This document shows, one piece after another, positions 459 through 58,636 of a DNA stretch of 64,000 nucleotides; the first letter of the stretch is position 1, and each line of letters starts with the position of its first letter. Position numbers and translations under genes: made by a program. Source of the DNA: Phycomyces blakesleeanus NRRL 1555(-) (lineage: Eukaryota > Mucoromycota > Mucoromycetes > Mucorales > Phycomycetaceae); the NCBI RefSeq assembly GCF_001638985.1, contig NW_017265139.1, forward strand, positions 1,984,001 through 2,048,000, in the 5' to 3' direction. The notes beneath the pieces were generated by a model. It searched no databases. It was not told where the DNA came from and worked only from the letters and a program-made list of their open reading frames with translations.

Positions 459-2936
459 TTACTTATTCCACTCAAAATCATCACCATTTGAAATGCGCAG
501 ATAAAGATTAGTCAAAACAGCAGCAATCAGAAGTCCGGTCAGAATTGCTGGTGCATTCTTCTCAGAGTAATCTCCAACTTCTCGCTTCTCGACGCTGGTG
601 GTACGAGCATGGTAGTTGTAGAGTGCATAGATCATGACACCAACCGAAATAAGCGTAAATAAGGTGGCTGAGATACGACCAACATGATCAGAAAAGTTTA
701 AAAGACCAAGGGCAAGTGCTCCCAACAGAACAGTAAATTGCAACCAATGCAAGAAAGTACGTTCGTTTGCAAAATAAGTCTTGACAGGAGGTGCACGCTG
801 AATGACAGGCTGGCGGGTAGTTGGGGCCTTGTGAGGGGCAGTGTTGCGCACAAACGTGGTCTTGGACTTGCGAACAAGGTTACGCAAGCCAGGGGGTGAA
901 AGAACCTTGAGAATACCATCACGCATAATGCCGCCTCGTCCTCTTTCTTCTTCTTGATTCTCTGTGTCCAACAAAGCTCTGCTTTCATTATCATTATCAT
1001 CATCTTCAGCGTTCATATCAATCTCTACACGATTCTCATCGTCATCTTCATCAGAGTCTTTTTGAGGTCCGCCGCTACTGATGCTACTGCTCTCGATGGC
1101 TTCGGGACGGAAGAGGCCAAAAGAAGGGTTGGGAGGTTTGCGGATATCGATATCCATTTGAGGAAGCCAGAAGGGCAGTTGGTAGATCTTGTCTTCCAAA
1201 AGTGTGGCACAACCATGAATAAACTTTGAGAACTTGGGAACAGACTCTACGAGATGTGAGTTGACTAGTTCAACAACCCATGCAGGGGGTTCTTGCCCAA
1301 CGTGAGTCTGGAGCTTAACTTCCAGGACAGCATAGGGAAAGCGGCAAATGTCCTTATCCGGGAGCTGCTTAAAAGGCCAGTCGACACCAATGTCATTACG
1401 ACGCCAATTGTCTCCTGAACGCACCTGGCCATCATTATCTTCGCGAATCAGGCTGAGTTCGGTGTCGAGCGAAATACGGACACGGGCATCACCGGGAAGT
1501 TGGAATGCTGTGCGGTTGTAAAAGGTACGCATCATGGGATGGAGTCTTTTTGTCAGCACGCGGTATTGGACCTCTTGGGCCAATTGCTCGAGCTCTTCGA
1601 TTTCTTTTTCGGATTTACGACCCTGCTCTTTGGCTTTGGCAAACAACTCGTCGGTGGTGTAATTGCCGCTGAGGAAAGCGTTGAGGTATTTTTCCTTGAT
1701 CGGGAATCTTGCCTTGACGCTCTTTTCGCCCGTCCAATCTTCGCGATGGGTTTTGCGCTCGACAAAAATCGTATTGCTACTCATTCCGCCGTACCATCGC
1801 ATACGAATAGCCTCAGCACCCTCGGTCTTCTCGAGACGTCCGGTGTATAGATCAAACTCATCATTATCATAGTAGATACTAGTGATTGCGGAATCCTCTT
1901 GGGAGAACTCTTTGTTGGGGTTGAACACAAGTACAGGAAGATGTTTGAGAATGATTAGCTTGAGTTCTGTGATGTTGTCAGGATGAACCCTAAAATGCAA
2001 AGAATGACATATGAGCCGATCTAGTACGATGTAAGGCACATCACTACTGCTACTACTACTACTACTACTACTACTACTATCATTAATAATCCCTTTCTGA
2101 CTTACCAGTATTTTGTAGTGTTTCTAACAAAGGCAGCTTGCTTTCCACCAGCAGAAGCATCACCACCTCGCTCCTTTCCTCGGGTACGGACTCGGTCGTA
2201 AAGACTGGATATACGGACAATTAGAGCATCGTAGTTTTCAGCGTAGAAAGGTTTAGCGTTTAGACGTACACCAAACATTGGTTTGAGTGACCAGCCGGTC
2301 ATTTTCTAGGTGCAAAAGAGGCAAGTGAGTCTGGCGGCCCATCAAAGGAATACACACGTGCAGAAGATGATTGGCAAGCACTGACAATTCAAGGACGTTA
2401 CGCGCGCTTTGTTCCTTTGCGTTCAAGCACCGCTATAAAAAATAAAAATAAAAAGTTCTAACTTACATCGTGTTTCTTTATGATCTTGAGGAAGCCAGTA
2501 TAGTTCAGACGAGTGAATTTTGCCAGATCGTGTACATCAGCTATGATGTGTCCCAACTCAATTTCAGATTCTGTGAATTCGTGTTCCTCGGCCTCGCTGT
2601 TCTGACACAGAGCCTCCACCTCCTGAGTTTCTGCTGTAATACGACCCTGGATTTCGTCTAGCTTGGTACGCTGGAAAGCATACACTTTCTCAAGCTCGCG
2701 TTCAAGTCGCTCAATAAACTTGGATTCATTGTCTTCAGTCCACTCTCGATTTGCAGCCTCATTCTTCAGAAAGTGTTTCAGATCATCGTACGCTGTGAAG
2801 GGAAGAAATAATAATTAAAGGGTGTGAATATAAAGTCGACTAATCCATTTAGATGTTTAGGTGGCTAGAGCTTACCAACATAGTTGGCTGTCCATTCTGG
2901 ATTGAGCGAAGTTCTGAGCGTAAGGCCGAACTTCAT
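459..2936 (-). CDS. VTC4: VTC4-type vacuolar transporter chaperone (polyphosphate polymerase)
   Basis: Family role: the catalytic subunit of the VTC complex makes polyphosphate from ATP and moves it into the vacuole. Exons read 2936-2876, 2792-2467, 2305-2106 and 1989-459, giving 705 residues (yeast Vtc4 is about 720). The start at 2936 opens the typical SPX N-terminus ([15 protein letters not shown]). Exons 2-3 complete the SPX domain, with the inositol-pyrophosphate-sensing lysine region [13 protein letters not shown]. Exon 4 holds the VTC catalytic core, with [42 protein letters not shown] and PKFSKFIHG. It ends in three DUF202 membrane helices. An acidic Asp/Glu-rich linker lies between core and membrane part. 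The basic residues of the active-site tunnel look intact, so this is more likely the catalytic Vtc4 than Vtc2/3. The gene lies head to tail behind PCCA, about 300 bp away. Confidence 0.93.
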
Positions 2937-3240: not shown

Positions 3241-5881
3241 TCAACAATCAATTACGGCATCTTGGAATTCAATCAAGAGTTGCCCTGTTTTTACAGAGGT
3301 TCCTGGGTGGACATGTATCTTCTTGATCGTACCCGTCCGAGGAGTACGCAGAATATTCTGCATTTTCATGGCTTCCACTACAGCCAACTCTGTACCTTCA
3401 ATCACCTAAGTCAAAAAAAAAATACAATGAAAAATCAGCCCATAATCTATCGATGTCAAATCTTTTTTAAGAAAAAATGATTTCATACCTCATCTCCTTC
3501 TTTTACTGCGAGACTAATGATTTTTCCAGGCATAGGACTATTAACAACCTTAGAAGTAGGCTCCCTTTCCTTCTTCTTCATAAGTTTTGACAACTGTCGT
3601 TGGCGTTCTGTCAACACATTGACATTATACTAAGAAGGGCTTAGTTAACCAGATTGTATATATGTTGAACACAAATGGGGTTTAGTTACTTTACTGCCTT
3701 GGTACTGTATCCGGAATCCACTGTCTAGTCGATCAAGATACTGTAACACCATTTTGTGACCTGTCTCTTGCACGGTAGCGTGGGCCAGGAGTCCATCGAG
3801 CGGCCAGCGTGTTGACAGAGTCCAAGTGTCATGAAGTGGCGATGTAATCTATTTGTGTGTGTAGATTTTAAAATTCAAAATTCCCCCCAAAAAAAAACAG
3901 TCTTGATTTTATCAATAGACTTTGCTAAAAATCAATTTACCTCAAAAGCATTATCGGGTCCTCGCTTGATCTCTAGTCTTGCTTCAGTAGTTGTATTAGT
4001 TTGGTCTTGAGTGACCTGCACCCAAACATCCCATGAAGACGGTCCTCCCTTTTTGCCCCACCGGCTATATTCCTTTTTGGCCCAAACAGCAGCACTGAGG
4101 GCAAAGAGACCATGTTGATCCTGCTCTGTCATCGGTGGGCGGCTATATCCACCAGGATATTCATCTGCCAAGAACTGGGTGGTGATCGATTGTCCGTCTT
4201 GGAAGCGAGGGTGAGCCATGACTCCTCGTAGGAGCGGAATGTTGTGAGTGACGCCACGGATCACATAATTATCCAGGGCATCGATCATTGTTTCAATCGC
4301 ACCTTGACGAGTAGGGGCGTGTGTGGCCAGCTTGCATAAAAGAGGATCATACTCTACATGCACTTCTGATCCTTCTATAAACCCAGAGTCACATCGCACA
4401 TGTGGTGTGATTGTTGGTTCCTGATAGGTCAATAAACGACCCACGGATGGGAGATAGTTTATTGGGTCCTCTGCATACACACGAGACTCGACAGCCCAAC
4501 CTTGCATCTGAACATCCTTTTGACTGATGGCCAGAGGATGGCCAGCAGCAGAGTACAGCATTTGTTCTACCAGGTCAAGTCCGGTTACATATTCTGTAAT
4601 AGGGTGCTCGACCTGCAGGCGAGTGTTCATTTCCAAGAAGTAAAAATTCTTTTGTGAATCCAACAAGAACTCTACCGTACCTATATATATGCATATACAT
4701 AAATACACGGGTGTTTATTTTGTGTACAAGTGATTCTTATATTCTTACCAGCAGAATTGTAGTTGACATGTTTAGCCAAAGCGACGGCTTGTGCTCCCAT
4801 CTTGTGCCGTGTAACTTCATCCACAAATGCACTTGGCGATTCTTCAATCACCTTTTGGTTCCTACGTTGTATTGAGCACTCTCTCTCGGGAAGATAGATG
4901 ACATTCCCAAAATTATCTCCGAGGACCTGGACTTCAATATGGCGAGGTTGATCAATGTACTTTTCAATCAACAGTCTAGCATCGCCAAACGAGGACTGTG
5001 CTTCCTGTTTGGCTAGCTTGAAACCATCCGCTAGCTCTATATCATTCCTGTTTTGTGATTTCATCCTGTCAGTACAGTACAATATTATTATTTTTCTTCT
5101 TCTTTTTATATGAATATATGCACATTACCAAGCAATTCTCATTCCTTTGCCGCCTCCCCCTGCACTCGCTTTAACCATGACGGGGTAACCAATGGTATGG
5201 GCAACAGATGTTGCTTCTTGAACCGAAAACACTTCTCCATCATAACCAGGGATACAATTTACACCACTTGCCTTTGCCAGAAGCTTGCTTTGGATTTTGT
5301 CTCCCATTGCTCCAATTGCCATTGCGGTTGGGCCGACGAATGTAACACCCTGTTGTTCTAGGGCCAGTACAAACCCCGGGTTTTCGCTCAAGAAACCATA
5401 CCCTGGGTGAACTGCCTGTGCCCCTGTATTCTTTATTGCTTCTAGCATCCGAGGAATCGAGAGATACGATTCTGACGATGCAGCCGGACCGAGATGGAAT
5501 GCTTCGTCTGCCAACTGTACATGGCGTGCGTTGGCATCCAGGTCCGAGTAGACTGCTACGGTCTTGATTCCCATATTGCGTGCTGTCTTGATAATTCGAC
5601 ATGCAATCTCTCCTCTGTTTGCTACCAACAAGGTATCAAATGTCTATATACATATTTATAGTCGACGGTAACATGCAGGTCAATGAGGGTGGTGGGACGT
5701 CCATAAGAGCGAAGGAGCGTACCTTTTTGTAGGGCTGGTGTGCATGTATGTGACTGGTAAGGTCGGTGTGGCTATGGGTGTGGTTGAAACGGTAGGTGGC
5801 TGGTGAGCGTAGAAATGTTATGGTGTTTAATCGGGCTGGACAGACCGATGCCAGACCATTGCGAGAAAGTAACTGGTACAT
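3241..5881 (-). CDS. PCCA: propionyl-CoA carboxylase alpha subunit, mitochondrial
   Basis: Family role: the biotin-carrying alpha subunit carboxylates propionyl-CoA to methylmalonyl-CoA together with a beta subunit. Exons are 5881-5723, 5643-5129, 5047-4749, 4680-3941, 3848-3690, 3629-3489 and 3405-3241, giving 725 residues (human PCCA is 728). The chosen ATG at 5881 gives a basic, Ser/Thr/Arg-rich leader of about 50 residues, probably a mitochondrial presequence. Biotin carboxylase follows: [24 protein letters not shown], the ATP-grasp glycine loop [27 protein letters not shown] and [11 protein letters not shown]. The BT linker region is next. The final exon carries the biotinyl site EAMKMQN (lysine near the coding end). 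[14 protein letters not shown] and the overall length match PCCA rather than methylcrotonyl-CoA or pyruvate carboxylase. A possible 7-codon upstream ORF starts at 5951. Confidence 0.93.
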
Positions 5882-33308: not shown

Positions 33309-36300
33309 TCACTTTTGAACTTTTTCTAACATCATATGAGCAGACTGCGGCGCAAACTTCTTAATAGCTGAAATAAGATCAGGGAACCTCAGCGGCTTTG
33401 TTACGTATTCATCCATTCCTGCTTGTAAGCACTTCTCACGATCACCGATCATAGCATGTGCTGTAAGGGCAATGATAGGGATATGTCTGTTAGGACCAGA
33501 AGTACGTTCGATTCTTCGGATTGTCTGCGTAGCCTCAAATCCTCCCATGATTGGCATCTGTACATCCATCAAAATTAAGTCGAACTTCTGAGACTCAAAT
33601 GCTTCAACAGCAAGTTTTCCGTTAGGTACAATCTTCACATTGTGTCCAAACTTCTCGAGAATGCGGACCGCAAGTTTCTGATTGACTACATTATCTTCGG
33701 CCAATAGAATCTCAAGAGGAACTGTCTTGGATGCATCATTCGGTAAAGCGGCAAGACTCTCGAGTGCAGGAAGAAGTGCATCAGCGAGATCGGGAACGTT
33801 TTTAGGTGAATTGATATAGGCAGTAATTCCAAGGTCAATACAGAGTTTCATGTTGAGTAGGTGTATTTCTGGTGCAATAAGAACAAGAGGAGTGTAACGC
33901 AAGTGAACAATTTCGCGAATTTTCTCTGCATGCGACATCTTATCAACAATTACTGTATCGAAGAATGGAGCATTCTTGTTACGGTTTGCGTTTGCATTTG
34001 CAACAGCTGTGGCTTCTTCAATTGAGGATACTTGGAAAGGCTTCAGACCAAGTTCAGTGATCTTATCGATCATACCAGTTTTGTCTTTCATACTGTCGAG
34101 GAATAAGATGTGTCTGTTCTGGAATCTGGCCATCTTCTTTACTACTTCGTCTTCACGCATAGCTACTTGCTTTAAGTTCATAGTAAAGTAGAATTCTGAG
34201 CCACGACCATACTTTGATTCAACCCACAAATCTCCACCCATGAGCTGGACCAAGTGTCTCGAAATAGATAAACCGAGGCCAGTACCTCCGTACTCACGTC
34301 TTTTATATAAATTTAATGAATAATAATAAAATGTTAGTTGTATGAATTCAATATACCAGTTATTTATTACTTACGTAGTACTTCCATCGGCTTGACAGAA
34401 TGTATCGAAAATAACATTTAATTTGTCTTCCTGAATGCCAATACCAGTATCGCTAACACAGAGTTGAAGTATAACATGGTCTCCTTGTGTCTTCGTAACA
34501 CGAGTACGCAATACAACTTCACCTTGAGTTGTGAACTTAACAGCATTTCCAATTAAGTTTGTGATAACTTGACGAAGTCTCAAGGGGTCACCAATCAACT
34601 GGTCGGGGATCGTACTTTCCATATTGTAAATCAGATCAAGTTTCTTTTGGTTTGCCTTAACTGCTAGTGTCTTAAGAACACTAAATACGGATGCTCGAAG
34701 GGAGAAAGGAATCGCCTCAATCATCATACGGCCAGCTTCAATCTTGGAAATATCCAAAATATCGTCAATAATTGTCAAGAGATTGTTCGCAAGACTTGAG
34801 ACGATCATCAGATTCTCACGTTGCTGACGAGTCAATTCAGTCTCAAGGGTCAAGGTGGTCATGCCAATAATACCGTTCATAGGTGTACGAATTTCATGAC
34901 TCATGTTAGCCAAAAACTCACTCTTTGATCTGTTGGCAAGTTCGGCTGCATCTCTTGCCAGCTGGTTCTTTTGGATCGCATCGCGTAAAGAGCCAACCAT
35001 CTGATTGATCTTCGTTTTGAGCGAATCCATTTCACCAGAAGCTTCAACAGTAATCAATCGCGAAAAGTCATTTTCGGTTGCAGCAGCTGAGATTTGAGCA
35101 AATGCACGAACTTGGGTAGTCAAATTTGAGGCCATTGTGTTTACATTACTGGTAATCTCGCGCCAGGCACCTTCAACATCCATAACCTGGGCTTGTACTC
35201 CAAGTTTTCCTTCAGTACCTACTTCTCTGGCAACTCTTGTAACTTCGGATGCAAATGAGCTTAGTTGATCCACCATGGTATTGATCGTGTTCTTAAGTTC
35301 GGCAATTTCTCCGTGCACCTCAACTTCAATCTTCTTCGATAAATCACCCTGCGCCACTGCTTTACATACTGCTGCAATCGCTCTTAGCTGGTCTGTTAGA
35401 TTACTGGCCATTAGGTTTACATTTTCAGTAAGGTCCTTCCAGGTACCGTCAACTTCTACAATAGTCGCTTGTCCACCAAGAATACCCTCAGTTCCAACTT
35501 CTCTCGCCACACGAGTAACCTCGGCGGCAAATATACGAAGCTGATCCACCATGCTATTAACAGTGTTCTTCAAATCAAGAATCTCTCCTCGTGTCTCGAC
35601 ATCAATCTTCTTTGATAGATCACCATTTGCTACCGCTTTGGTGACTTGTGCAATGGATCGCACCTGAGTGGTTAGATTGGCCGCCATTGTATTCACATTG
35701 TCTGTTAGGTCCATCCATGTACCAGCCACACCATTAACAATGGCCTGGCCTCCTAGTTTACCATCTGTACCGACTTCTCTTGCAACACGGGTAACCTCAG
35801 ATGCAAACACACGTAGTTGGTCAACCATAGAGTTTACTGTGACCTTGAGATCTTGAATTTCTCCTCGTGTCTCGACATCGATCTTTTTCGATAGATCACC
35901 ATTCGCAACGGCTTTTGTCACTTCAGCAATGGAACGGACTTGTGTAGTAAGATTAGCAGCCATCTGGTTGACGTTATCGGTCAAGTCCAGCCAGGTTCCA
36001 GCAACACCTTCAACCATGGCTTGGCCACCAAGTTTACCTTCGGTTCCTACTTCTTTAGAAACACGTGTAACTTCAGAGGCGAAGATACGGAGCTGGTCAA
36101 CCATATTATTGACAATATTCTTTAGATCAAGAATTTCTCCGCCACTTTCTACCCCAATCTTTTTAGATAGATCGCCAAGTGCAACGGCTTTAGTGACTTC
36201 GGCAATGGATCGTACTTGATTCGTAAGATTCGCAGCCATAATATTGACATTGTCTGTCAAGTCCAACCACGTGCCGGCCACACCTTCCACCATAGCCTGG

Positions 36301-39300
36301 CCACCTAGCTTTCCTTCCGTTCCTACTTCTTTAGAGACACGCGTGACTTCTGAAGCAAAGATACGTAATTGATCCACCATGTTGTTAACTGTGTTTTTCA
36401 AGTCAAGAATTTCTCCTCGCGTCTCAACTTCAATCTTTTTAGAGAGATCTCCTAAGGCCACGGCCTTAGTAACAAGGGCAATTGATCGTACTTGGGTTGT
36501 TAGATTGGCGGCCATTGTGTTGACATTGTCTGTAAGGTCCATCCAAGTACCGGCCACACCATCAACCATGGCTTGACCACCAAGTTTACCCTCCGTTCCG
36601 ACTTCTTTTGACACACGGGTAACTTCTGCTGCAAATACCCTCAATTGATCTACCATGTTATTCACCGTATTCTTAAGATCAAGAATTTCACCACGAGTTT
36701 CAACTTCAATTTTCTTCGATAGATCTCCATTTGCGACAGCTTTAGTGACTTGTGCAATTGAGCGTACTTGTGTTGTAAGATTGGCTGCCATTGTGTTAAC
36801 GTTGTCGGTAAGATCCATCCAGGTACCAGCAACTCCATCAACCATTGCTTGTCCACCTAGCTTGCCATCTGTGCCGACTTCCTTTGATACACGAGTGACC
36901 TCAGAAGCGAATATACGGAGTTGATCCACCATATTGTTGACAATATTCTTTAGATCCAGAATTTCTCCACCACTCTCAACCTCGATCTTCTTAGAAAGAT
37001 CACCTAACGCCACAGCCTTGGTTACTTCGGCAATGGATCGCACTTGACTAGTTAGATTGGCAGCCATTTGGTTTACATTGTCAGTTAGGTCCAACCAGGT
37101 ACCGGCCACACCTTCAACCATAGCTTGTCCACCCAGTTTGCCTTCTGTTCCTACTTCTTTCGACACACGAGTGACTTCAGAGGCAAAGATACGAAGCTGA
37201 TCCACCATGTTATTGACGATATTCTTTAGATCCAAAATTTCTCCACCACTCTCGACTTCAATCTTCTTGGAAAGATCACCTAGAGCTACAGCCTTAGTAA
37301 CCTCGGCAATGGAACGCACTTGACTTGTTAGGTTGGCGGCCATCTGGTTGACATTGTCAGTTAAGTCCAGCCAGGTACCAGCGACTCCCTCAACCATGGC
37401 CTGGCCACCTAGTTTACCCTCGGTACCGACTTCCTTTGATACACGAGTTACTTCAGAGGCAAAAATACGTAGCTGGTCCACCATATTGTTTACAATGTTC
37501 TTTAGATCTAGGATTTCTCCGCCACTCTCAACATCGATTTTTTTAGATAAGTCACCTAGTGCAACAGCCTTAGTAACCTCGGCAATGGAACGCACTTGAT
37601 TTGTTAGATTGGCAGCCATCTGGTTGACATTGTCAGTGAGGTCAAGCCATGTGCCAGCTACACCTTCAACCTTTGCTTGTCCTCCTAGCTTTCCCTCAGT
37701 ACCGACTTCTTTAGATACACGAGTGACTTCGGAGGCAAAAATACGTAGCTGATCCACCATGTTGTTGACGATATTCTTTAGGTCCAAGATCTCTCCGCCA
37801 CTCTCTACTTCAATCTTCTTGGAAAGATCACCTAGAGCCACAGCCTTGGTAACTTCGGCAATCGAACGCACTTGACTTGTTAGGTTGGCGGCCATCTGGT
37901 TGACATTGTCAGTTAAGTCCAGCCAGGTACCAGCGACTCCCTCAACCATGGCCTGGCCACCTAGTTTACCCTCGGTACCGACTTCCTTTGATACACGAGT
38001 TACTTCAGAGGCAAAGATACGAAGCTGATCCACCATGTTATTGACAATATTCTTTAGATCCAGAATTTCTCCACCGCTCTCGACTTCAATCTTCTTCGAT
38101 AGATCACCTAGGGCTACAGCCTTGGTAACTTCGGCAATAGAACGCACTTGACTTGTTAGATTGGCAGCCATTTGGTTTACATTGTCAGTTAGGTCCAACC
38201 AGGTACCGGCCACACCTTCAACCATAGCTTGTCCACCTAGTTTGCCTTCTGTTCCTACTTCTTTCGACACACGAGTGACTTCAGAGGCAAAGATACGTAG
38301 CTGGTCCACCATGTTATTGACGATGTTCTTTAGATCCAAGATTTCGCCGCCACTTTCGACCTCAATCTTCTTTGATAGATCACCTAGAGCCACCGCCTTT
38401 GTAACTTCAGCAATGGATCTGACCTGATTTGTTAGATTGGCAGCCATCTGGTTGACATTGTCTGTCAGGTCTAACCAGGTGCCCGCAACACCTTCAACCA
38501 TTGCCTGACCACCAAGTTTACCCTCCGTGCCAACTTCCTTCGATACACGAGTGACTTCAGAAGCAAAAATACGTAGCTGATCCACCATGTTATTGACGAT
38601 ATTCTTTAGGTCCAAGATCTCTCCGCCACTCTCTACTTCAATCTTCTTGGAAAGATCACCTAGAGCCACAGCCTTGGTAACTTCCGCAATCGAGCGTACT
38701 TGACTTGTTAGGTTGGCAGCCATCTGGTTGACATTGTCTGTCAGATCCAACCATGTACCAGCGACTCCTTCAACCATAGCTTGACCACCTAGTTTTCCCT
38801 CAGTTCCTACTTCCTTAGACACACGAGTGACTTCAGAGGCAAAGATACGAAGCTGATCCACCATGTTATTGACAATATTCTTTAGATCCAGAATTTCTCC
38901 ACCGCTCTCGACTTCAATCTTCTTCGATAGATCACCTAGAGCGACAGCCTTGGTAACTTCCGCAATCGAGCGTACTTGACTTGTTAGATTGGCAGCCATT
39001 TGGTTTACATTGTCCGTCAAGTCCAACCAGGTACCAGCAACACCTTCAACCATAGCTTGCCCGCCTAGTTTTCCTTCTGTTCCGACTTCTTTAGATACAC
39101 GAGTGACTTCAGAGGCAAAAATACGGAGCTGATCCACCATGTTATTGACAATGTTCTTTAGATCCAGAATTTCGCCACCACTCTCTACTTCAATCTTCTT
39201 TGATAGATCACCTAGAGCCACAGCTTTGGTAACTTCGGCAATGGAGCGCACTTGACTTGTCAAATTGGCAGCCATCTGATTTACATTGTCGGTGAGGTTG

Positions 39301-42300
39301 AGCCATGTACCGGCCACACCTTCAACCATTGCCTGACCACCAAGTTTACCCTCTGTACCGACTTCCTTGGATACACGAGTGACTTCAGAAGCAAAAATAC
39401 GTAGCTGATCCACCATGTTGTTGACAATATTCTTTAGATCCAGAATTTCTCCACCACTCTCAACCTCGATCTTCTTAGAAAGATCACCTAACGCCACAGC
39501 CTTGGTTACTTCGGCAATGGATCGCACTTGATTTGTTAGATTAGCGGCCATCTGGTTTACGTTGTCAGTTAGGTCCAGCCAGGTACCAGCCACACCTTCC
39601 ACCATGGCTTGACCGCCTAGTTTTCCCTCAGTTCCTACTTCCTTTGATACACGAGTGACCTCAGAAGCGAATATACGGAGTTGATCCACCATATTGTTGA
39701 CAATATTCTTTAGATCCAGAATTTCTCCACCACTCTCAACCTCGATCTTCTTAGAAAGATCACCTAATGCCACAGCCTTGGTTACTTCGGCAATGGATCG
39801 CACTTGACTAGTTAGATTGGCAGCCATTTGGTTTACATTGTCAGTTAGGTCCAACCAGGTACCGGCCACACCTTCAACCATAGCTTGTCCACCCAGTTTG
39901 CCTTCTGTTCCTACTTCTTTCGACACACGAGTGACTTCAGAGGCAAAAATACGGAGCTGATCCACCATGTTATTGACAATGTTCTTTAGATCCAAGATTT
40001 CGCCACCACTCTCGACTTCAATTTTTTTGGATAGATCTCCAAGAGCTACAGCCTTGGTTACTTCGGCAATGGATCGTACTTGACTCGTTAGATTTGCAGC
40101 CATCTGGTTGACATTGTCAGTTAAGTCCAGCCAGGTACCAGCGACTCCCTCAACCATGGCCTGGCCACCTAGTTTACCCTCGGTACCGACTTCCTTTGAT
40201 ACACGAGTGACTTCGGAGGCAAAGATACGAAGCTGATCCACCATGTTATTGACGATATTTTTTAGATCCAGAATTTCGCCACCACTCTCTACTTCAATCT
40301 TCTTTGATAGATCGCCTAGAGCCACAGCCTTGGTGACTTCAGCGATTGATCTGACCTGGCTAGTGAGATTTGCGGCCATTTGGTTCACGTTATCGGTCAA
40401 GTCCAGCCAAGTACCGGCAACACCTTCGACCATAGCCTGGCCACCTAGTTTACCTTCGGTACCGACTTCCTTTGATACACGAGTGACTTCAGAGGCAAAA
40501 ATACGTAGCTGGTCCACCATATTATTGACAATATTTTTTAGATCTAAAATTTCTCCGCCACTCTCTACTTCGATCTTCTTTGATAGATCTCCTAGAGCCA
40601 CAGCCTTGGTAACTTCAGCGATTGATCTGACTTGGTTTGTTAGATTTGCAGCCATCTGGTTGACATTGTCTGTCAGATCTAACCAGGTACCAGCAACTCC
40701 TTCAACCATAGCTTGACCACCTAGTTTTCCCTCAGTTCCTACTTCCTTAGACACACGAGTGACTTCAGAGGCAAAGATACGAAGCTGATCCACCATGTTA
40801 TTGACAATATTCTTTAGATCCAGAATTTCTCCACCGCTCTCGACTTCAATCTTCTTCGATAGATCACCTAGAGCGACAGCCTTTGTAACTTCCGCGATTG
40901 ATCTGACCTGACTAGTTAGATTTGCAGCCATTTGGTTTACATTGTCCGTCAAGTCCAACCAGGTACCAGCAACACCTTCAACCATAGCTTGCCCGCCTAA
41001 TTTTCCTTCTGTTCCGACTTCTTTCGACACGCGAGTGACTTCAGAAGCGAAGATACGGAGCTGGTCAACCATGTTATTGACAATGTTCTTTAGATCCAGA
41101 ATTTCGCCACCACTCTCTACTTCAATCTTCTTTGATAGATCGCCTAGAGCGACAGCCTTGGTTACTTCGGCAATGGATCGTACTTGACTAGTTAGATTGG
41201 CAGCCATTTGGTTTACATTGTCAGTTAGATCCAACCAGGTACCGGCCACACCTTCGACCATGGCTTGTCCTCCTAGTTTGCCTTCGGTGCCGACTTCTTT
41301 AGATACACGAGTGACTTCAGAGGCAAAAATACGGAGCTGATCCACCATGTTATTGACAATGTTCTTTAGATCCAAGATTTCTCCACCACTCTCTACTTCG
41401 ATCTTTTTCGATAGATCGCCTAGAGCCACAGCTTTGGTAACCTCGGCAATGGAACGTACTTGACTTGTCAAATTAGCAGCCATCTGGTTGACATTGTCCG
41501 TAAGGTTAAGCCATGTGCCGGCAACACCTTCGACCATGGCTTGACCACCAAGTTTACCCTCTGTACCGACTTCCTTGGATACACGAGTGACTTCAGAAGC
41601 GAAGATACGTAGCTGATCCACCATGTTATTGACAATGTTTTTTAAATCCAAGATTTCTCCACCACTCTCAACCTCAATCTTCTTCGATAGATCACCTAGA
41701 GCGACAGCCTTGGTTACTTCGGCAATGGATCGTACTTGACTCGTTAGATTTGCAGCCATTTGGTTTACATTATCGGTCAGGTCCAACCAGGTACCAGCAA
41801 CACCTTCAACCATGGCTTGGCCGCCTAGTTTGCCTTCTGTTCCGACTTCTTTCGACACGCGAGTGACTTCAGAAGCGAAGATACGTAGCTGGTCAACCAT
41901 GTTGTTGACAATATTCTTTAGATCCAGAATTTCTCCACCACTCTCTACTTCGATCTTCTTTGATAGATCACCAAGAGCTACAGCCTTTGTAACTTCGGCA
42001 ATAGATCGAACTTGATTTGTTAGATTTGCAGCCATCTGGTTGACGTTATCAGTTAGGTCCAACCAAGTGCCAGCAACTCCTTCGACCATAGCTTGACCGC
42101 CTAGTTTTCCCTCAGTTCCTACTTCCTTAGACACACGAGTGACTTCCGAAGCAAAGATACGAAGCTGATCCACCATGTTATTGACAATATTCTTTAGATC
42201 CAGAATTTCTCCACCACTCTCGACTTCAATCTTCTTTGATAGGTCGCCTAGAGCCACAGCCTTGGTAACCTCGGCAATTGATCGCACTTGGCTCGTTAGA

Positions 42301-45300
42301 TTAGCCGCCATGATGTTGACATTATCGGTTAGCTCATGCCAGGTACCAGCCACCCCTTCGACCTTTGCCTGACCGCCTAGTTTTCCTTCTGTTCCTACTT
42401 CTTTGGACACGCGAGTAACTTCGGAAGCGAAAACACGAAGCTGATCCACCATGCTGTTCACGATGTTCTTTAGGTCCAAGATTTCGCCTCCACTCTCAAC
42501 CTCGATTTTCTTTGATAGATCACCTAGTGCTACTGCCTTTGTCACTTCAGCAATTGAGCGCACCTGGGTAGTAAGATTTGCTGCCATGTGATTGACATTA
42601 TCTGTTAGATCCATCCATGTTCCTCCTACGTTTGGAACTACAGCTTGGCCACCTTTATGCAAAAAAATACAATAAAGAATTAGCATAGTAAGTATATATT
42701 AAAATAAAAGTGTATACCAATAAGACATGCGATATTTTTGATATGATTGAAGTATCAAATACTTTAAGTGTATTTGTACTATTACTAGTTTTTATTTACC
42801 TAGTAAGCCTTCTGTACCGACTTCTTTGGCTACTCTTGTTACTTCGGCTGCAAAAACGTTTAGTTGGTCCACCATGCTATTGACTGTGTTTTTTAGTTCC
42901 TGGATTTCGCCGCGAGTTTCGACTTCAATCTTCTTTGATAGATCACCATTAGCGACCGACTTGGTGACTTCGGCAATCGATCGCACTTGAGTTGTTAGAT
43001 TGGCGGCCATCTGATTGACGTTATCTGTCAAATCCATCCAAGTGCCGTCAACGTTTGGTACCAGTGCTTGGCCGCCTAGTTTTCCATCTGTTCCGACTTC
43101 TTTTGCTACGCGTGTTACCTCAGCCGCAAAGACATTTAGTTGATCTACCATGTTGTTGACCGTATTCTTTAGATCTAGAATTTCTCCTCGTGTTTCAACA
43201 TCGATCTTCTTTGATAGATCACCCTTTGCGACGGCCTTTGTTACTTCGGCAATTGATCGCACTTGAGTTGTTAAATTTGCAGCCATCGTGTTCACATTAT
43301 CTGTCAGGTCTTTCCAGGTTCCGCTCACACTGGGCACAATTGCTTCACCACCAAGTTTTCCTTCTGTGCCAACTTCACGCGCCACTCTTGTGACTTCTGA
43401 AGCAAATACACGCAGTTGATCTACCATGTTGTTGACTGTGTCCTTAAGATCAGATATTTCTCCACTCACGTCGACCATGATTTTTTTCGAGAGGTCTCCT
43501 GTGGCTACTGCCTTTGTGACGACGGCGATTGATCGTACTTGAGTTGTGAGGTTTGTGGCCATGGTGTTCACGTTCTCGGTCAGATCCTTCCATGTACCGT
43601 CTACATTTGGAACTACAGCCTGGCCACCGAGCTTGCCTTCGGTACCGACTTCCTTGGCGACTCTGGTGACTTCAGTAGAAAAGACACGCAATTGATCAAC
43701 CATGTTATTGACCGTGTTTTTTAGGTCCAGGATCTCTCCTCGTGTTTCAACCTCGATTTTTTTCGATAGATCACCCTTTGCAACTGCCATCGTGACTTCG
43801 GCAATCGATCGCACTTGGGTGGTTAGATTTGCGGCCATTGTATTTACATTGTCTGTCAAATCTTTCCAGGCACCTCCGACATCTTTGACATGCGCTTGAC
43901 CGCCTAGTTTTCCTTCTTCGCCGACTTCTAGTGAAACTCGCCGCACTTCTGCAGAAAATAGCGTCAATTGATCAACCTAAGGGCAGAAAAAAAAACAAAC
44001 AAATTCATGTACATATATGTATATGTATATGTATGTGTATGTGTAAGTGTAAGTGTAATTGTAGGTAAATATGTACATGTACTTGTTTATGTATAGTAAT
44101 TGTAATTATAAAAGTGAAAAAAAAATAAGTTGGATCAGAAGATTCAAAACTGTGGAACCATAGTTTTTTTCCAGCCAAAAGTTTGATTGTTATTATTTTG
44201 CATTTTGTTTAGTTTCTTACCATTCGATTCATAGTCGTGATGAGTTCAAGTACTTCTCCTTGTGCACTTGCGGTTACTTTTTTACTCAAATCACCACAAG
44301 CAACGGCTTTTGCAACAGATGCAATGTCTCGTACTTGGTTCGTGATTTTAAAAGCCATCATGTTGACATTGTCTGTCAAGTCTTTCCATGTTCCACCTAC
44401 ATCCTTTACAATAGCTTGTCCTCCTAATATTCCTTGTGTACCTACTTCAAGTGAAACGCGTGTCACCTCTGTTGCAAATATGGATAACTGCATAATGAAA
44501 ATAAAAAATCAAATCAAAAATAGTTAGCCTTTATTTCTTTTTTGCTCTTCCTCTTTATTTTATTTATTTTGCTATGTATATTTGATTTACAAAAATCAAA
44601 TAAGCTATGTACATATATAATCTTCGTCCAGTAACCAAGCCCCCTCCTCTCTCACATTGTATACATATACATTTTTTGTTTAAATAAAATAAAAAATAAT
44701 TGCATTTATTATATACATTTAATTACTTAATTCACTAATTAATTCTTGAACTATTTATCAAACTACCTTATTAGACTGTTTGACTATTTACTTTCTTTAA
44801 AAAAAATTATTTGTTTATTTTACCTGATCGACCATTGTATTGATCGTATTTTTTAGATCAAGCATCTCTCCCCGGACTTCTACTGTCACCTTCTTTGTCA
44901 AATCACCTTTGGCAACACTCTTTGAAACCTTTGCAATGTCTCGGACTTGGTTCGTCAAATTTGCTGCCATAGTGTTAACGTTGTCTGTCAATTCTTTCCA
45001 AATTCCGTCTGCGGCTTCAACCTTGGCTTGAGCGCCAAGTTTTCCTTCTGTTCCGACTTCGTGAGCTACCCGAGATACTTCAGAAGCAAACATGTTGAGT
45101 TGATTGACTATATATATATATATATATATATAATAGATAATTCATAAAAGATACATAGAGAGAGAAAGAGTTTTGGTTAGTGATTTTACACAATGTTTTT
45201 TTAATAATAATAAAAAACAATTACTAGAATTGAATCAAGTTGAATTGAACCGAATTGAATCAAAATGAACCCAATTGAACTAAAATAATACTAATCGATT

Positions 45301-47171
45301 TGATTTGAATTAAATTAAAATGAATTGAATTAAATAAAAAAAAGTAAGAAAAAGGAAATTGAATTGAATAATATACATGTAATAGTATTATTGTTTTTGG
45401 TTAGTTCTCTCACCCATAGTGTTAAACGTGTTCTTTAAAAGGAGCGTTTCACCCTTTACAGGGACCGTCATCGTTTTGCTTAGATCGCCTCGAGCAATTG
45501 CTGTCGACACATCCGCAATATCGCGTACTTGTTCCAAGTGGCTGGTTGTCATTGTGTTTAAGTTTACAACAAAGTTGTGCCAGGCACCGTTACATTCTTT
45601 TTCGCAGCGTGCTTGAACACCGAGTTTTCCTTTGACGGCTGTCTCGTGAGCAACGTAAATAACTTCGTCAGCGATAAGTTTTAGGTGATCAGCCATGGCA
45701 TTGACCGCATTTTTGAGAGTGTTGATTGGAGCAGAGGGTAAGGTTGGTCGGGTGACGCAGCGTTCGTGGTTGCAGGTGATTCTTTTGTCGAGGATGCCGG
45801 CGAAAATTGCAGATGACACACTCACGGCCTGGAGGACGCAATCGGGACAAACGATGTTATCTGGACTGGTCTGGTTAGTGGCGGCAGGGAAGGGAACCAA
45901 AGGGGGTGAGAGGGCATTAAAGTAGACAGGGTAAGCGGTAGCATGCGAGGCAACAGTGAAAGGAGGAGTAGGCATAGATGACGTGGTTAAACCACTGGCA
46001 ATTGGGGCAATAGCAGAGTAGATGTCAGAAGTAGTAGCAGTGGCAGGGGCAGGGGCTGTATAGATAAAATGTGTAATTATATATATATAAAGCAAAATAA
46101 AGGTTAGGGATTTATTCAATATATACATACATACGTACGTACGTATATATGCATATACGCATATAAGCATATACAAAAAAAAGCGCGTCAAAGAATAAAT
46201 AAAAATAAAGAATGGAAGAAAAGGCATAGATATATATCTATCTAGTTTGTTTTAGTTGGAGGGGATTTTAACTTGCCAAAGTATCCGATTCCGGGTGAAG
46301 TAGTTGGCAGGGTGAGTAATTGGTTGTACGAGGATTGCATTTGTTCGAGCATAGATGTGTTTTGGACGGTTGAGATTCCTTCTTCGGATGTGGCATTGTT
46401 GTCGTGGGTTTCTTGTCGATTTAGGTCTGGCGGAGGCGGATCCGTATCTTCTTCTGGATCATAGTGTGATGTCAGCATCTGATGTTGTTGTTGAATTGCA
46501 ATACGGTATCTAAGGTTTTCTGTTTCGAGATCCAGTTGGCGTTGCGCAATTTGTTTTAGAGTACTGTCTAAGAATGTTGCCATCTCTACATGAACTGGAT
46601 CGAGGGTATCAAGAGTTTCTTTTGTCAATCTGCTTTTGAGACATGCTTCAATGTCTCGTTGTTCCATGCTCTCGACCATAGATTTGATGTAATTAAGAAT
46701 TGATGCGGTCATTGTGTTTGTGTGAGATTCAGCTTCTTTTAGTTTAGATTCTTCGTTGTCGTCTTTCTCTTTCTCTTCTTTGCTTTCTTTTTCTTTGTTT
46801 TTGCCTTGCTCTTCTTGGGCTAGTTTGGTCTCCTGAGAGGTCTCTTGATGAGTCTCTTGATGAGTCTCTTGATTGTCTTGAGATGAGTTTGTAACCGTTG
46901 GGCCAGCACAAGTAGGTTGGTTGGTAGTTTCTGTTGAGTTTACAGGCATAGCAGAATCTTGAGACAAGGGGGGATTATTCGTGTCGTCTGTGGGGACTGG
47001 CGTAGTTGGAGTGGTTGGTGCGGTGGTATTGGTAGTGGTATTGAGTGTGGATGAGGGTGCGGGCGCGGGTGTGGGTGTGGAGGTGGATGTAGAGTTGGAG
47101 GTGGAGCCGTCGCTCTTGCAGTGTCTCTTACTGTTGAGTGAGGGATTGCTATTGTCTGAGAAGCGTTTCAT
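33309..47171 (-). CDS. nik1: giant group III hybrid histidine kinase with about 35 HAMP units
   Basis: Family role: Nik1/Os-1-type cytosolic kinases sense osmotic and other stress, feed the Ypd1-Ssk1-Hog1 phosphorelay, and are targets of phenylpyrrole and dicarboximide fungicides. Exons are 47171-46277, 46055-45414, 45107-44824, 44487-44221, 43976-42800, 42652-34375 and 34299-33309, in frame for 4177 residues (Nik1 relatives are about 1200-1300). The N-terminus is a low-complexity Thr/Pro/Gln/Glu region, then a short coiled segment. A Cys-containing insert follows, then tandem HAMP units of 92 residues: about seven diverged units in exons 2-5 and 28 in exon 6. The kinase core is complete: H box [11 protein letters not shown] (His near 3674), N box [19 protein letters not shown] and GGTGLGLS. 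A receiver follows, with [10 protein letters not shown], acceptor Asp in LILMDVQMP (near 4093) and Lys in VTKP. Intron 1 uses a GC donor. There is no membrane helix. Confidence 0.93.
34926..42652 (-). repeat. 28 tandem 276-bp HAMP-encoding repeats
   Basis: This is a coding tandem repeat inside exon 6 of the kinase. The distance from the first unit start to the 28th unit start is exactly 27 x 276 bp. Units 3-21 encode almost the same 92 residues, differing mainly at a TSQ/TNQ position and an LDL/LNL position. Units 22-28 and 1-2 are more diverged, so the array is youngest in the middle. Every unit keeps the HAMP core ([14 protein letters not shown]) and the linker helix ([18 protein letters not shown]). 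Confidence 0.97.
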
Positions 47172-57612: not shown

Positions 57613-58636
57613 GAAGATCCTAACAAACCATCATATTTTATATCTATTTATTTATTTTGTGTGTGTCTGTGTAGCACCCTACGGCAATAGATGTCTGGCG
57701 AAAGGAAATAGATACTCGCGACGATAGTGGTTCTTTGGTTCGTGCAGCAATTCTGGGCGTACCAAAGTTTTGGGATGGCACAACAGTTATCCAAAATTCG
57801 GCTGAATGTTGTCGTATCACTCATCCCGATCCTCGCTCTGTCATATCTTCTGTCATTGTATCTACCATTGTAGCAAGGTAAGCTTTCTATATATATATAT
57901 ATGTATCTAAATTACCTTGGCCCCTTCTTCTCTCCCCTCCTTCCACTCTCCCCTTGTATACATTTATTTATACCAATATTTCTTCTTTAGAATGCTGCGT
58001 GGACAAGACCTAGAAATGGAAATACTGGACTCTAGCCAACCTTCACCTCTACCTTCTCCTCTGCTGTCAAAACCTAATCAATTACCACTCTCATCAACAA
58101 AATTACCTCCGACTCCAACATCAACACCGCCTACACCAACCAGCGCTACTACCCCTACCACAAAATGGACTGACTCACTCGAGACAGATCGTGTATTAAT
58201 GTCACTCGTCAGAGCAGTGATTGACGCCAACAAGCGAATCCTGACCGCACCAAACACCGACCCACTTTTTCAAACTCCAGAAACAGACGCAAACCTGATG
58301 CAAGAGTACTTTGAGCAATTGATCAAGACTTGCTACCAGGAACCTCTTCAGCTCTCTCCACAGTTACTACACGAATCTCATGTGTTTTCCTGTCTAGGAG
58401 GAGCCAGCTATGTATTCACGCGCGTGATTCCAAAGGGTAGCGAGACCGAGTACTTTAAGCGACTGTTGATGGATATCGTGATGCAGGGTGGACACGCAGA
58501 TGCAAACGGGTCGGTTGCAGGTGCCTTGCTTGGTCTGAGGATAGGGTATGGTTGTCTTCCGAGCGAGTGGGTTGTTGGACTCAAGAGGTGGGAGTGGTTA
58601 GAAGATAGAGTTGAAGAGTTTTGTGAAATGCTCTAA
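56857..58636 (+). CDS. ADP-ribosylglycohydrolase family protein
   Basis: Family role: these binuclear-metal enzymes (DraG/ARH) remove ADP-ribose from proteins or metabolites. Exons 56857-56929, 57003-57168, 57312-57513, 57675-57877 and 57991-58636 join in frame to 429 residues. The N-terminus shows the family pattern KGMIFGAILGDSLGLATEG. DFGDDAEQQLLIL stands where the first metal-binding acidic cluster (usually DDT/DDTE) is expected. Near the C-terminus, GGHADANGSVAGALLGLRIG replaces the usual GGD(A/T)DTNG metal motif, with His for the first Asp and Ala for the Thr. A Pro/Ser/Thr-rich insert lies near residues 225-275. The altered motif could mean changed metal use or substrate, or loss of catalysis. 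The start is the first ATG, immediately after a possible acceptor AG, so a 5' untranslated intron is likely. Confidence 0.85.

What the first reader, a model, noticed from the sequence alone, without database searches (positions are those of the whole stretch)
34926..46055. Histidine kinase with about 35 tandem HAMP units, several times the usual number
Seen: seven exons join in frame to a 4177-residue group III hybrid kinase. It has seven diverged HAMP units and then 28 more in one 8.3 kb exon, with exact 276-bp periodicity and no stop codon. Known: Nik1/Os-1-type kinases usually carry about five to six such units, which tune signalling by alternating helical states. Inference: an array this long could act as an extended rod, a tunable sensor or an amplifier, and its length may vary between strains. 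Intact H, N, G and receiver motifs argue it is functional.
Basis: partly seen in the sequence, partly recalled or inferred. Interest (0 to 1): 0.93.

Follow-up and report, generated by a model that had tools for sequence, protein, structure and literature searches.

The report
Fungal kinase with frozen 35-repeat rod
A stress-sensing kinase gene of the mould Phycomyces carries 35 copies of a signalling repeat, about 20 of them nearly identical in protein although their DNA has drifted far apart, which suggests that evolution has guarded each copy.

Summary
Seven exons (minus strand, 47171-33309) join to a 4177-residue group III hybrid histidine kinase with 35 tandem 92-residue HAMP units. The genome is Phycomyces blakesleeanus NRRL 1555(-).

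"Several times the usual number" needs context. In length-filtered searches 45 Mucorales records carry 17-26 units and Kickxellomycotina up to 39. The window gene ranks fifth of the 308 proteins counted, first among Mucorales. A second such kinase lies elsewhere in this genome.

The unusual part is the core. In units 11-28, 86 of 92 codon columns vary but only 4 of 92 residue columns; pS is 0.56 and pN 0.007. The copies are therefore old, not recent slippage or assembly collapse. Most relatives have mixed units; here one unit type, nearest Rhizopus delemar unit 14 (90/92), fills 20 consecutive positions.

A public model of this gene (1637 aa) skips most of the array through three doubtful introns.

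Best reading: a dimeric phosphorelay kinase with a serial poly-HAMP rod in which every unit must stay compatible. The mechanism is inferred; no transcript or usable structure was available.

The parts
46277..47171 (-). Exon 1: N-terminal region with no Pfam family; start codon chosen by homology
   Evidence: gene model; alignment to Mucorales N-termini; no Pfam match
45414..46055 (-). Exon 2: cysteine-containing N-terminal block, partial unit and most of unit 1
   Evidence: HAMP match
44824..45107 (-). Exon 3: HAMP unit (end of unit 1, most of unit 2)
44221..44487 (-). Exon 4: HAMP unit
   Evidence: gene model; HAMP match (not scanned)
42800..43976 (-). Exon 5: four HAMP units and part of unit 8
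   Evidence: (4 stretches)
34375..42652 (-). Exon 6: rest of unit 8, units 9-35, HisKA and first part of HATPase_c; 8278 nt without stop
34971..45666 (-). Whole array, 35 full 92-residue units (aa 429-3649), introns included in the span
   Evidence: coordinates converted by hand from residue numbers
36903..42422 (-). Units 9-28: 20 consecutive units each matching the core consensus at 88 of 92 or better
36903..41870 (-). Core units 11-28: near-identical protein, divergent synonymous sites
34731..34928 (-). HisKA domain with HEIRTP motif (H3674)
34170..34592 (-). HATPase_c, split by the last intron (34374-34300); N, G1, F and G2 motifs present
33309..34299 (-). Exon 7: end of HATPase_c, receiver domain, stop
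33360..33710 (-). Receiver domain (Response_reg), LMDVQMP motif with D4093

Best explanation
This is a soluble group III hybrid histidine kinase whose N-terminal part is an unusually long poly-HAMP rod. Each 92-residue unit is a pair of HAMP modules (published for CaNik1p), so 35 units would give about 70 stacked modules in a parallel dimer, very roughly 150 nm long if a unit rises about 4.5 nm. The rod passes packing changes in series to HisKA and so sets kinase or phosphatase output into an Hpt/response-regulator relay. From a mixed ancestral array of about 20 units, the Phycomyces lineage gained length when one unit type came to fill about 20 positions. Because the units act in series, a faulty one would break transmission, so purifying selection kept every copy almost unchanged while synonymous sites drifted towards saturation. 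Adding whole pairs keeps the alternation of HAMP states in phase, which would explain the nearly fixed 92-residue step. Shown: architecture, count, register, single-type core, low pN/pS. Inferred: dimeric rod, series transmission, input signal, length.
For: Intact HisKA, HATPase_c and receiver. Spacing exactly 92 in 33 of 34 full-unit steps, in 1647 of 1815 steps of hand-listed fungal records and 1405 of 1511 of the rest. Core: 86 of 92 codon columns vary against 4 of 92 residue columns, pN/pS 0.012 (95% 0.004-0.021); 12 of 18 units identical in protein. Twenty consecutive units of one type, nearest Rhizopus delemar unit 14. Solved poly-HAMP chains 9trk and 9trj match the array (E 3.5e-92, 2.7e-42). 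The genome has 2 Hpt and 18 receiver matches. Literature: paired HAMPs of 92 residues and Hog1p activation on HAMP deletion (PMC3848655); alternating conformers (PMC3570549).
Against: No transcript, protein or usable structure: the AlphaFold model has pLDDT 37.4. Units exchange sequence: ten identical tracts of 90-188 bp against none in 100 shuffles, and units 18 and 28 differ at one base, so conversion helps keep them alike. Over a wider stretch (units 4-31) within-array identity is 91.7%, no higher than in two Linnemannia elongata records (92.1%, 92.4%) and near the paralog (90.8%). Synonymous sites are near saturation, so dN/dS is only approximate. Relatives with 17-26 units show that 35 are not needed for the family's function.
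Confidence: 0.5

Rival explanations
1. Neutral length: extra units were inserted by recombination and tolerated because a longer rod works as well as a shorter one. Selection only removes units that misfold or block transmission, and length has no function of its own.
For: Unit number varies widely between species and units shift between Linnemannia elongata records. Exchange between core units is visible.
Against: Does not by itself explain why one unit type fills 20 positions, nor the length being the highest of 45 Mucorales records.
Confidence: 0.3
2. Many sensors or docking sites: identical units bind the same ligand or partner, giving dose or avidity, and identity is kept by that contact rather than by serial transmission.
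For: Twelve of 18 core units are identical in protein, as a repeated binding surface might need.
Against: No ligand-binding domain family was found in the array beyond HAMP-type matches and weak helical ones. The nearly fixed 92-residue step is not required for independent sites.
Confidence: 0.13
3. The mature mRNA lacks most of the array, as in the public model P0222, so the protein has about 12 units, nearer to an ordinary Nik1 kinase.
For: P0222 (1637 aa, partial, NRRL 1555(-)) joins pieces of this gene across 3456, 1926 and 270 bp with GT and AG at the joins; 12 units by HMM.
Against: Two of the three introns have no stop in frame and the first has two, while containing the real 147-bp intron. 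The joins add stray residues that break the register. Low pN/pS on the skipped codons would be unexplained. The paralog's long frame is annotated whole in another assembly.
Confidence: 0.05
4. Assembly artefact: the array length is wrong in this assembly.
For: Long tandem arrays are prone to misassembly (general knowledge); reads were not available.
Against: Core units differ at about 14% of bases, so copies are distinguishable; the paralog's frame agrees over 2140 aa with a record on a contig of different length.
Confidence: 0.02

Closest known systems
Group III (Nik1/Os-1/TcsC) hybrid histidine kinases
   Same: HAMP repeats of about 92 residues, then HisKA, HATPase_c and receiver
   Different: 35 units instead of the five to six given in PMC3848655
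Long poly-HAMP kinases of Mucoromycota, Mortierellomycota and Kickxellomycotina (database records)
   Same: same architecture, unit length and, in Mucorales, N-terminal block
   Different: most have mixed units; the window gene has a single-type core and is the longest of the 45 Mucorales records counted, while four Kickxellomycotina records are longer
The C5 paralog in the same genome (P0002)
   Same: 23 full units, partly homogeneous core with pS 0.58
   Different: core pN four times higher (0.028); belongs to a different Mucorales clade in the kinase tree
Bacterial poly-HAMP proteins, Aer2 and PDB 9trk/9trj
   Same: concatenated HAMP domains; sequence match to 9trk, 9trj and weakly 3vol; bacterial records with the same 92-residue step
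   Different: fewer units (8-20 in the other class), often with GAF-type domains
Polyubiquitin genes (evolutionary analogy, recalled, not tested)
   Same: tandem units alike in protein with divergent synonymous sites
   Different: polyubiquitin is cut into monomers; here the units stay in one chain

Membership tests
Group III hybrid histidine kinase | tandem HAMP repeats of about 90 residues before the kinase | tested here: met
Group III hybrid histidine kinase | HisKA, HATPase_c and receiver with conserved motifs | tested here: met
Group III hybrid histidine kinase | clusters with named Nik1-type kinases in a kinase-domain tree | tested here: inconclusive
   includes one record named NIK1 (P0011, Entomortierella) and many unnamed fungal relatives, but no Ascomycete Nik1
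Group III hybrid histidine kinase | control of Hog1 signalling and fludioxonil response | not testable with these tools
   needs experiments
Poly-HAMP rod (Aer2-like stacking) | two HAMP modules per 92-residue unit | tested here: inconclusive
   helix pattern compatible, but pLDDT 37.4; published for CaNik1p
Poly-HAMP rod (Aer2-like stacking) | sequence homology to solved poly-HAMP structures | tested here: met
Poly-HAMP rod (Aer2-like stacking) | continuous stacked dimeric structure | not testable with these tools
   single-chain prediction only, low confidence

The most novel reading that the evidence does not exclude
The core is a ruler or series transmission line: one ancestral unit type came to fill about 20 positions because length itself is useful, and each copy is individually indispensable. 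Removing pairs would then shift the signalling threshold step by step. It would be a case of tandem protein repeats diverging far less between copies than is usual.
Probability: 0.3. Interest if true: 0.8.

Novelty: new variant of a known kind. Interest (0 to 1): 0.6.

Why it matters
The function of HAMP repeats in group III kinases is called largely unknown in PMC3848655 (abstract passage). That repeat number varies between fungi is already in print (PMC5159414, passage). Long arrays appear in many early-diverging fungal records, yet eight searches of the held library on HAMP and histidine-kinase terms listed no title or abstract about them; full texts were opened for few of the hits. A nearly monotypic array with frozen units gives a clean system for asking what each HAMP pair contributes. 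It also runs against the reported rule that repeats diverge faster within proteins than between species (PMC5120217, abstract and section 7), though vertical dN/dS could not be measured here. A public gene model hides most of the array, so similar genes may be undercounted.

Tried and rejected
Assembly artefact: unlikely, since core units differ at about 14% of bases and the paralog's frame is identical over 2140 aa to a record on a contig of different length. Recent slippage: not compatible with a mean pS of 0.56. Higher-order repeat: mean identity by lag 1-13 stays between 83 and 88% with no clear period. Strict length constancy between strains: I first took similar unit counts in Linnemannia elongata as stability; a closer look shows shifted units, so I dropped that argument.

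Structure: one AlphaFold job gave pLDDT 37.4. A second alignment with full-length relatives was scattered over the repeats and was not submitted; no fold search was run.

Literature: PMC2878581, PMC2892831 and a Phycomyces genome paper (DOI recalled) were not held. PMC2852951 was not read: the one call failed on a short term and was not repeated. Dunin-Horkawicz and Lupas 2010 was seen only as a citation and may already describe long arrays. No paper behind 9trk or 9trj was found.

Limits of the counts: protein searches return candidates of 0.55-1.75 times the query length and list the best 120, so the taxon ranges describe long proteins, not species. Taxon lists were made by hand from source names. 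The 45 Mucorales records all come; one (P0010) is unnamed and was placed by the tree. Ten named fungal records, all under 1767 aa with 11-14 units (five Mucorales, four Mortierellomycota, one Dimargaris), stayed in the 'other' class, as did unnamed ones. P0222 was left out of the classes. Some Kickxellomycotina records are partial or irregular.
Full report
WHAT IS THERE. On the minus strand a stop-free frame of 2775 codons lies at 34371-42698, with a 276-bp tandem repeat and no indels. Joining seven exons gives 12534 nt and 4177 residues with no internal stop; introns are one GC-AG and five GT-AG. The N-terminal exons agree with Mucorales relatives.

DOMAINS. Pfam finds HAMP in each array exon scanned (27 + 4 + 1 + 1 stretches; exon 4 was not scanned there), then HisKA, HATPase_c and Response_reg. 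It also lists helical families such as a coronavirus stalk or spectrin, with no stretch passing on its own, which I take as coiled-coil noise. The six-frame genome search finds 34 HAMP matches here and 22 in one other gene (56 matches of 58 scored candidates; such counts are lower bounds). A 92-residue HMM, built from this gene's and the paralog's units and then from relatives, counts 35 full units and one partial match; spacings between full units are 93 once and 92 thirty-three times.

ORGANISM AND PARALOG. The paralog on contig C5 has a 2140-codon frame identical to a Phycomyces blakesleeanus protein, P0002. Contig C6 is 2433215 bases, the contig length listed for P0222, a protein of strain NRRL 1555(-) that maps onto the window gene. 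P0002 has 23 full units. A kinase-domain tree puts the two Phycomyces genes in different Mucorales clades, so the duplication seems older than the genus; no support values were printed.

IS 35 UNUSUAL? Three protein searches gave 307 public proteins. Counting units that cover at least 61 of 92 positions: Coemansia 39, Linderina 38, two more Coemansia 37, the window gene 35. Forty-five Mucorales records have 17-26 (median 21), 12 Mortierellomycota 21-30, 13 Kickxellomycotina 14-39, three Dacrymycetes 24-27, and 223 others (mostly prokaryotic or unnamed, with ten named short fungal records) 8-20 (median 14). The window gene is the longest of the Mucorales sample, about 1.7 times its median, but not a record.

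THE CORE. Gene units 11-28 (units 3-20) have mean nucleotide identity 86%, pS 0.558 and pN 0.0067 over 153 pairs. Twelve of 18 are identical in protein. Of 92 columns, 86 have more than one codon and 4 more than one residue; pN/pS is 0.012 (bootstrap over columns 0.004-0.021), and the 138 pairs with pS of at least 0.4 give the same ratio. Fully randomised synonymous codons with this codon usage would give pS 0.787. For comparison, pN/pS is 0.21 among the nine other full units of exon 6 and 0.048 in the paralog's ten-unit core; a kinase fragment compared between paralogs has pS 0.71 and pN 0.10.

RESULTS AGAINST A PURE SELECTION READING. Ten identical tracts of 90-188 bp occur between core units, none in 100 column shuffles, and codon identity is weakly correlated over short distances. 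Units 18 and 28 differ at one base. So units also exchange sequence, at least now and then.

ORIGIN OF THE CORE. In close relatives units align by position at high identity while differing along the array: Mucor lusitanicus and M. atramentarius share 21 aligned units at 99.6%, against 78-85% within arrays. Not all of the 24 pairs run there behave so: Coemansia P0123 and P0124 align at 79.1% and Phycomyces P0002 with Spinellus at 90.4%, about the within-array level. Four Linnemannia elongata records (22 or 23 units) align at 98.6-99.9% in the four pairs run, but leave two or three units unmatched on each side, and their units match at shifted positions: units were gained and lost at about strain level, or gene models differ. 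The window core consensus is nearest Rhizopus delemar unit 14 (90 of 92; next best unit there 86); five other Rhizopus records give 86-89, the other Mucorales examined, own paralog included, 82-88, and Mortierella alpina 68. Twenty consecutive units (9-28) match the consensus at 88 of 92 or better.

HOW UNUSUAL IS THE HOMOGENEITY? In one search (exon 6 only for the window gene) within-core identity is 97.0% with 11 identical units of 19; the 61 other rows lie at 55.8-92.1%, with at most 4 identical units. Over a wider stretch (units 4-31) the window gene has 91.7%, no higher than Linnemannia elongata (two records at 92.1% and 92.4%) and near the paralog's 90.8%. The claim therefore concerns the core. 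The simplest history is that one unit type came to fill about 20 positions long ago. That this type was already frequent in an ancestor is not excluded, since some Rhizopus genes have two close matches.

THE PUBLIC MODEL. P0222 is annotated as a partial type IA hybrid kinase of 1637 aa. It maps to the window in five exact pieces, starting in exon 5. Three gaps fall in the array (3456, 1926 and 270 bp) with GT and AG at the joins; two have no stop in frame, and the first has two and includes the real 147-bp intron. The joins insert stray residues that break the 92-residue register. I take them as prediction artefacts; no transcript was available to prove it.

STRUCTURE AND MECHANISM. CaNik1p repeats are described as pairs of HAMP domains with an overall length of 92 residues, and deleting all its HAMP domains activates Hog1p in yeast (PMC3848655, passages). 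In D. hansenii Nik1 the order of HAMP domains matters (review PMC5159414, passages). Alternating conformers in tandem HAMPs are discussed in PMC3570549 (passages). TcsC of A. fumigatus needs its N-terminus for nuclear targeting (PMC11253588, passages). PDB chains 9trk and 9trj match the array profile strongly and 3vol weakly. The AlphaFold model of four units has pLDDT 37.4; its helix pattern (about 30 and 29 residues, connectors about 14 and 19) is compatible with two modules per unit but is no evidence of geometry. The genome gives 8 HisKA, 2 Hpt and 18 receiver matches, exon pieces possibly counted apart, so relay parts exist; which act with this kinase is unknown. The rod length of about 150 nm is my estimate from recalled HAMP helix geometry.

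CONCLUSION. A real gene, a new variant of a known kind. Its length is notable but shared by a wide group of fungi. The single-type, protein-frozen, DNA-diverged core is the feature most worth study.

Noticed in passing
G000 contig C5:1073283-1079702 (L009/L010): A second long poly-HAMP hybrid kinase in the same genome, its array frame identical to public protein P0002.
   Followed up: yes
window 43097-35292: Public protein P0222 skips most of the array by three introns lying mostly or wholly in open coding sequence; other records show odd spacings that may have the same cause.
   Followed up: partly
public proteins P0042-P0188 (part): Prokaryotic records carry poly-HAMP arrays with about 55-73% identity to the queries over the aligned part; a 97-residue step occurs among them. 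Ancestry between fungi and bacteria was not examined.
   Followed up: no
window 46276-46056: Intron 1 has a GC-AG boundary (GCAAGT donor).
   Followed up: partly
window 462-2123 (-), 3935-5643 (-), 57911-58633 (+): Neighbouring frames match VTC plus DUF202, biotin carboxylase, and ADP-ribosylglycohydrolase; no link to the kinase is apparent.
   Followed up: no
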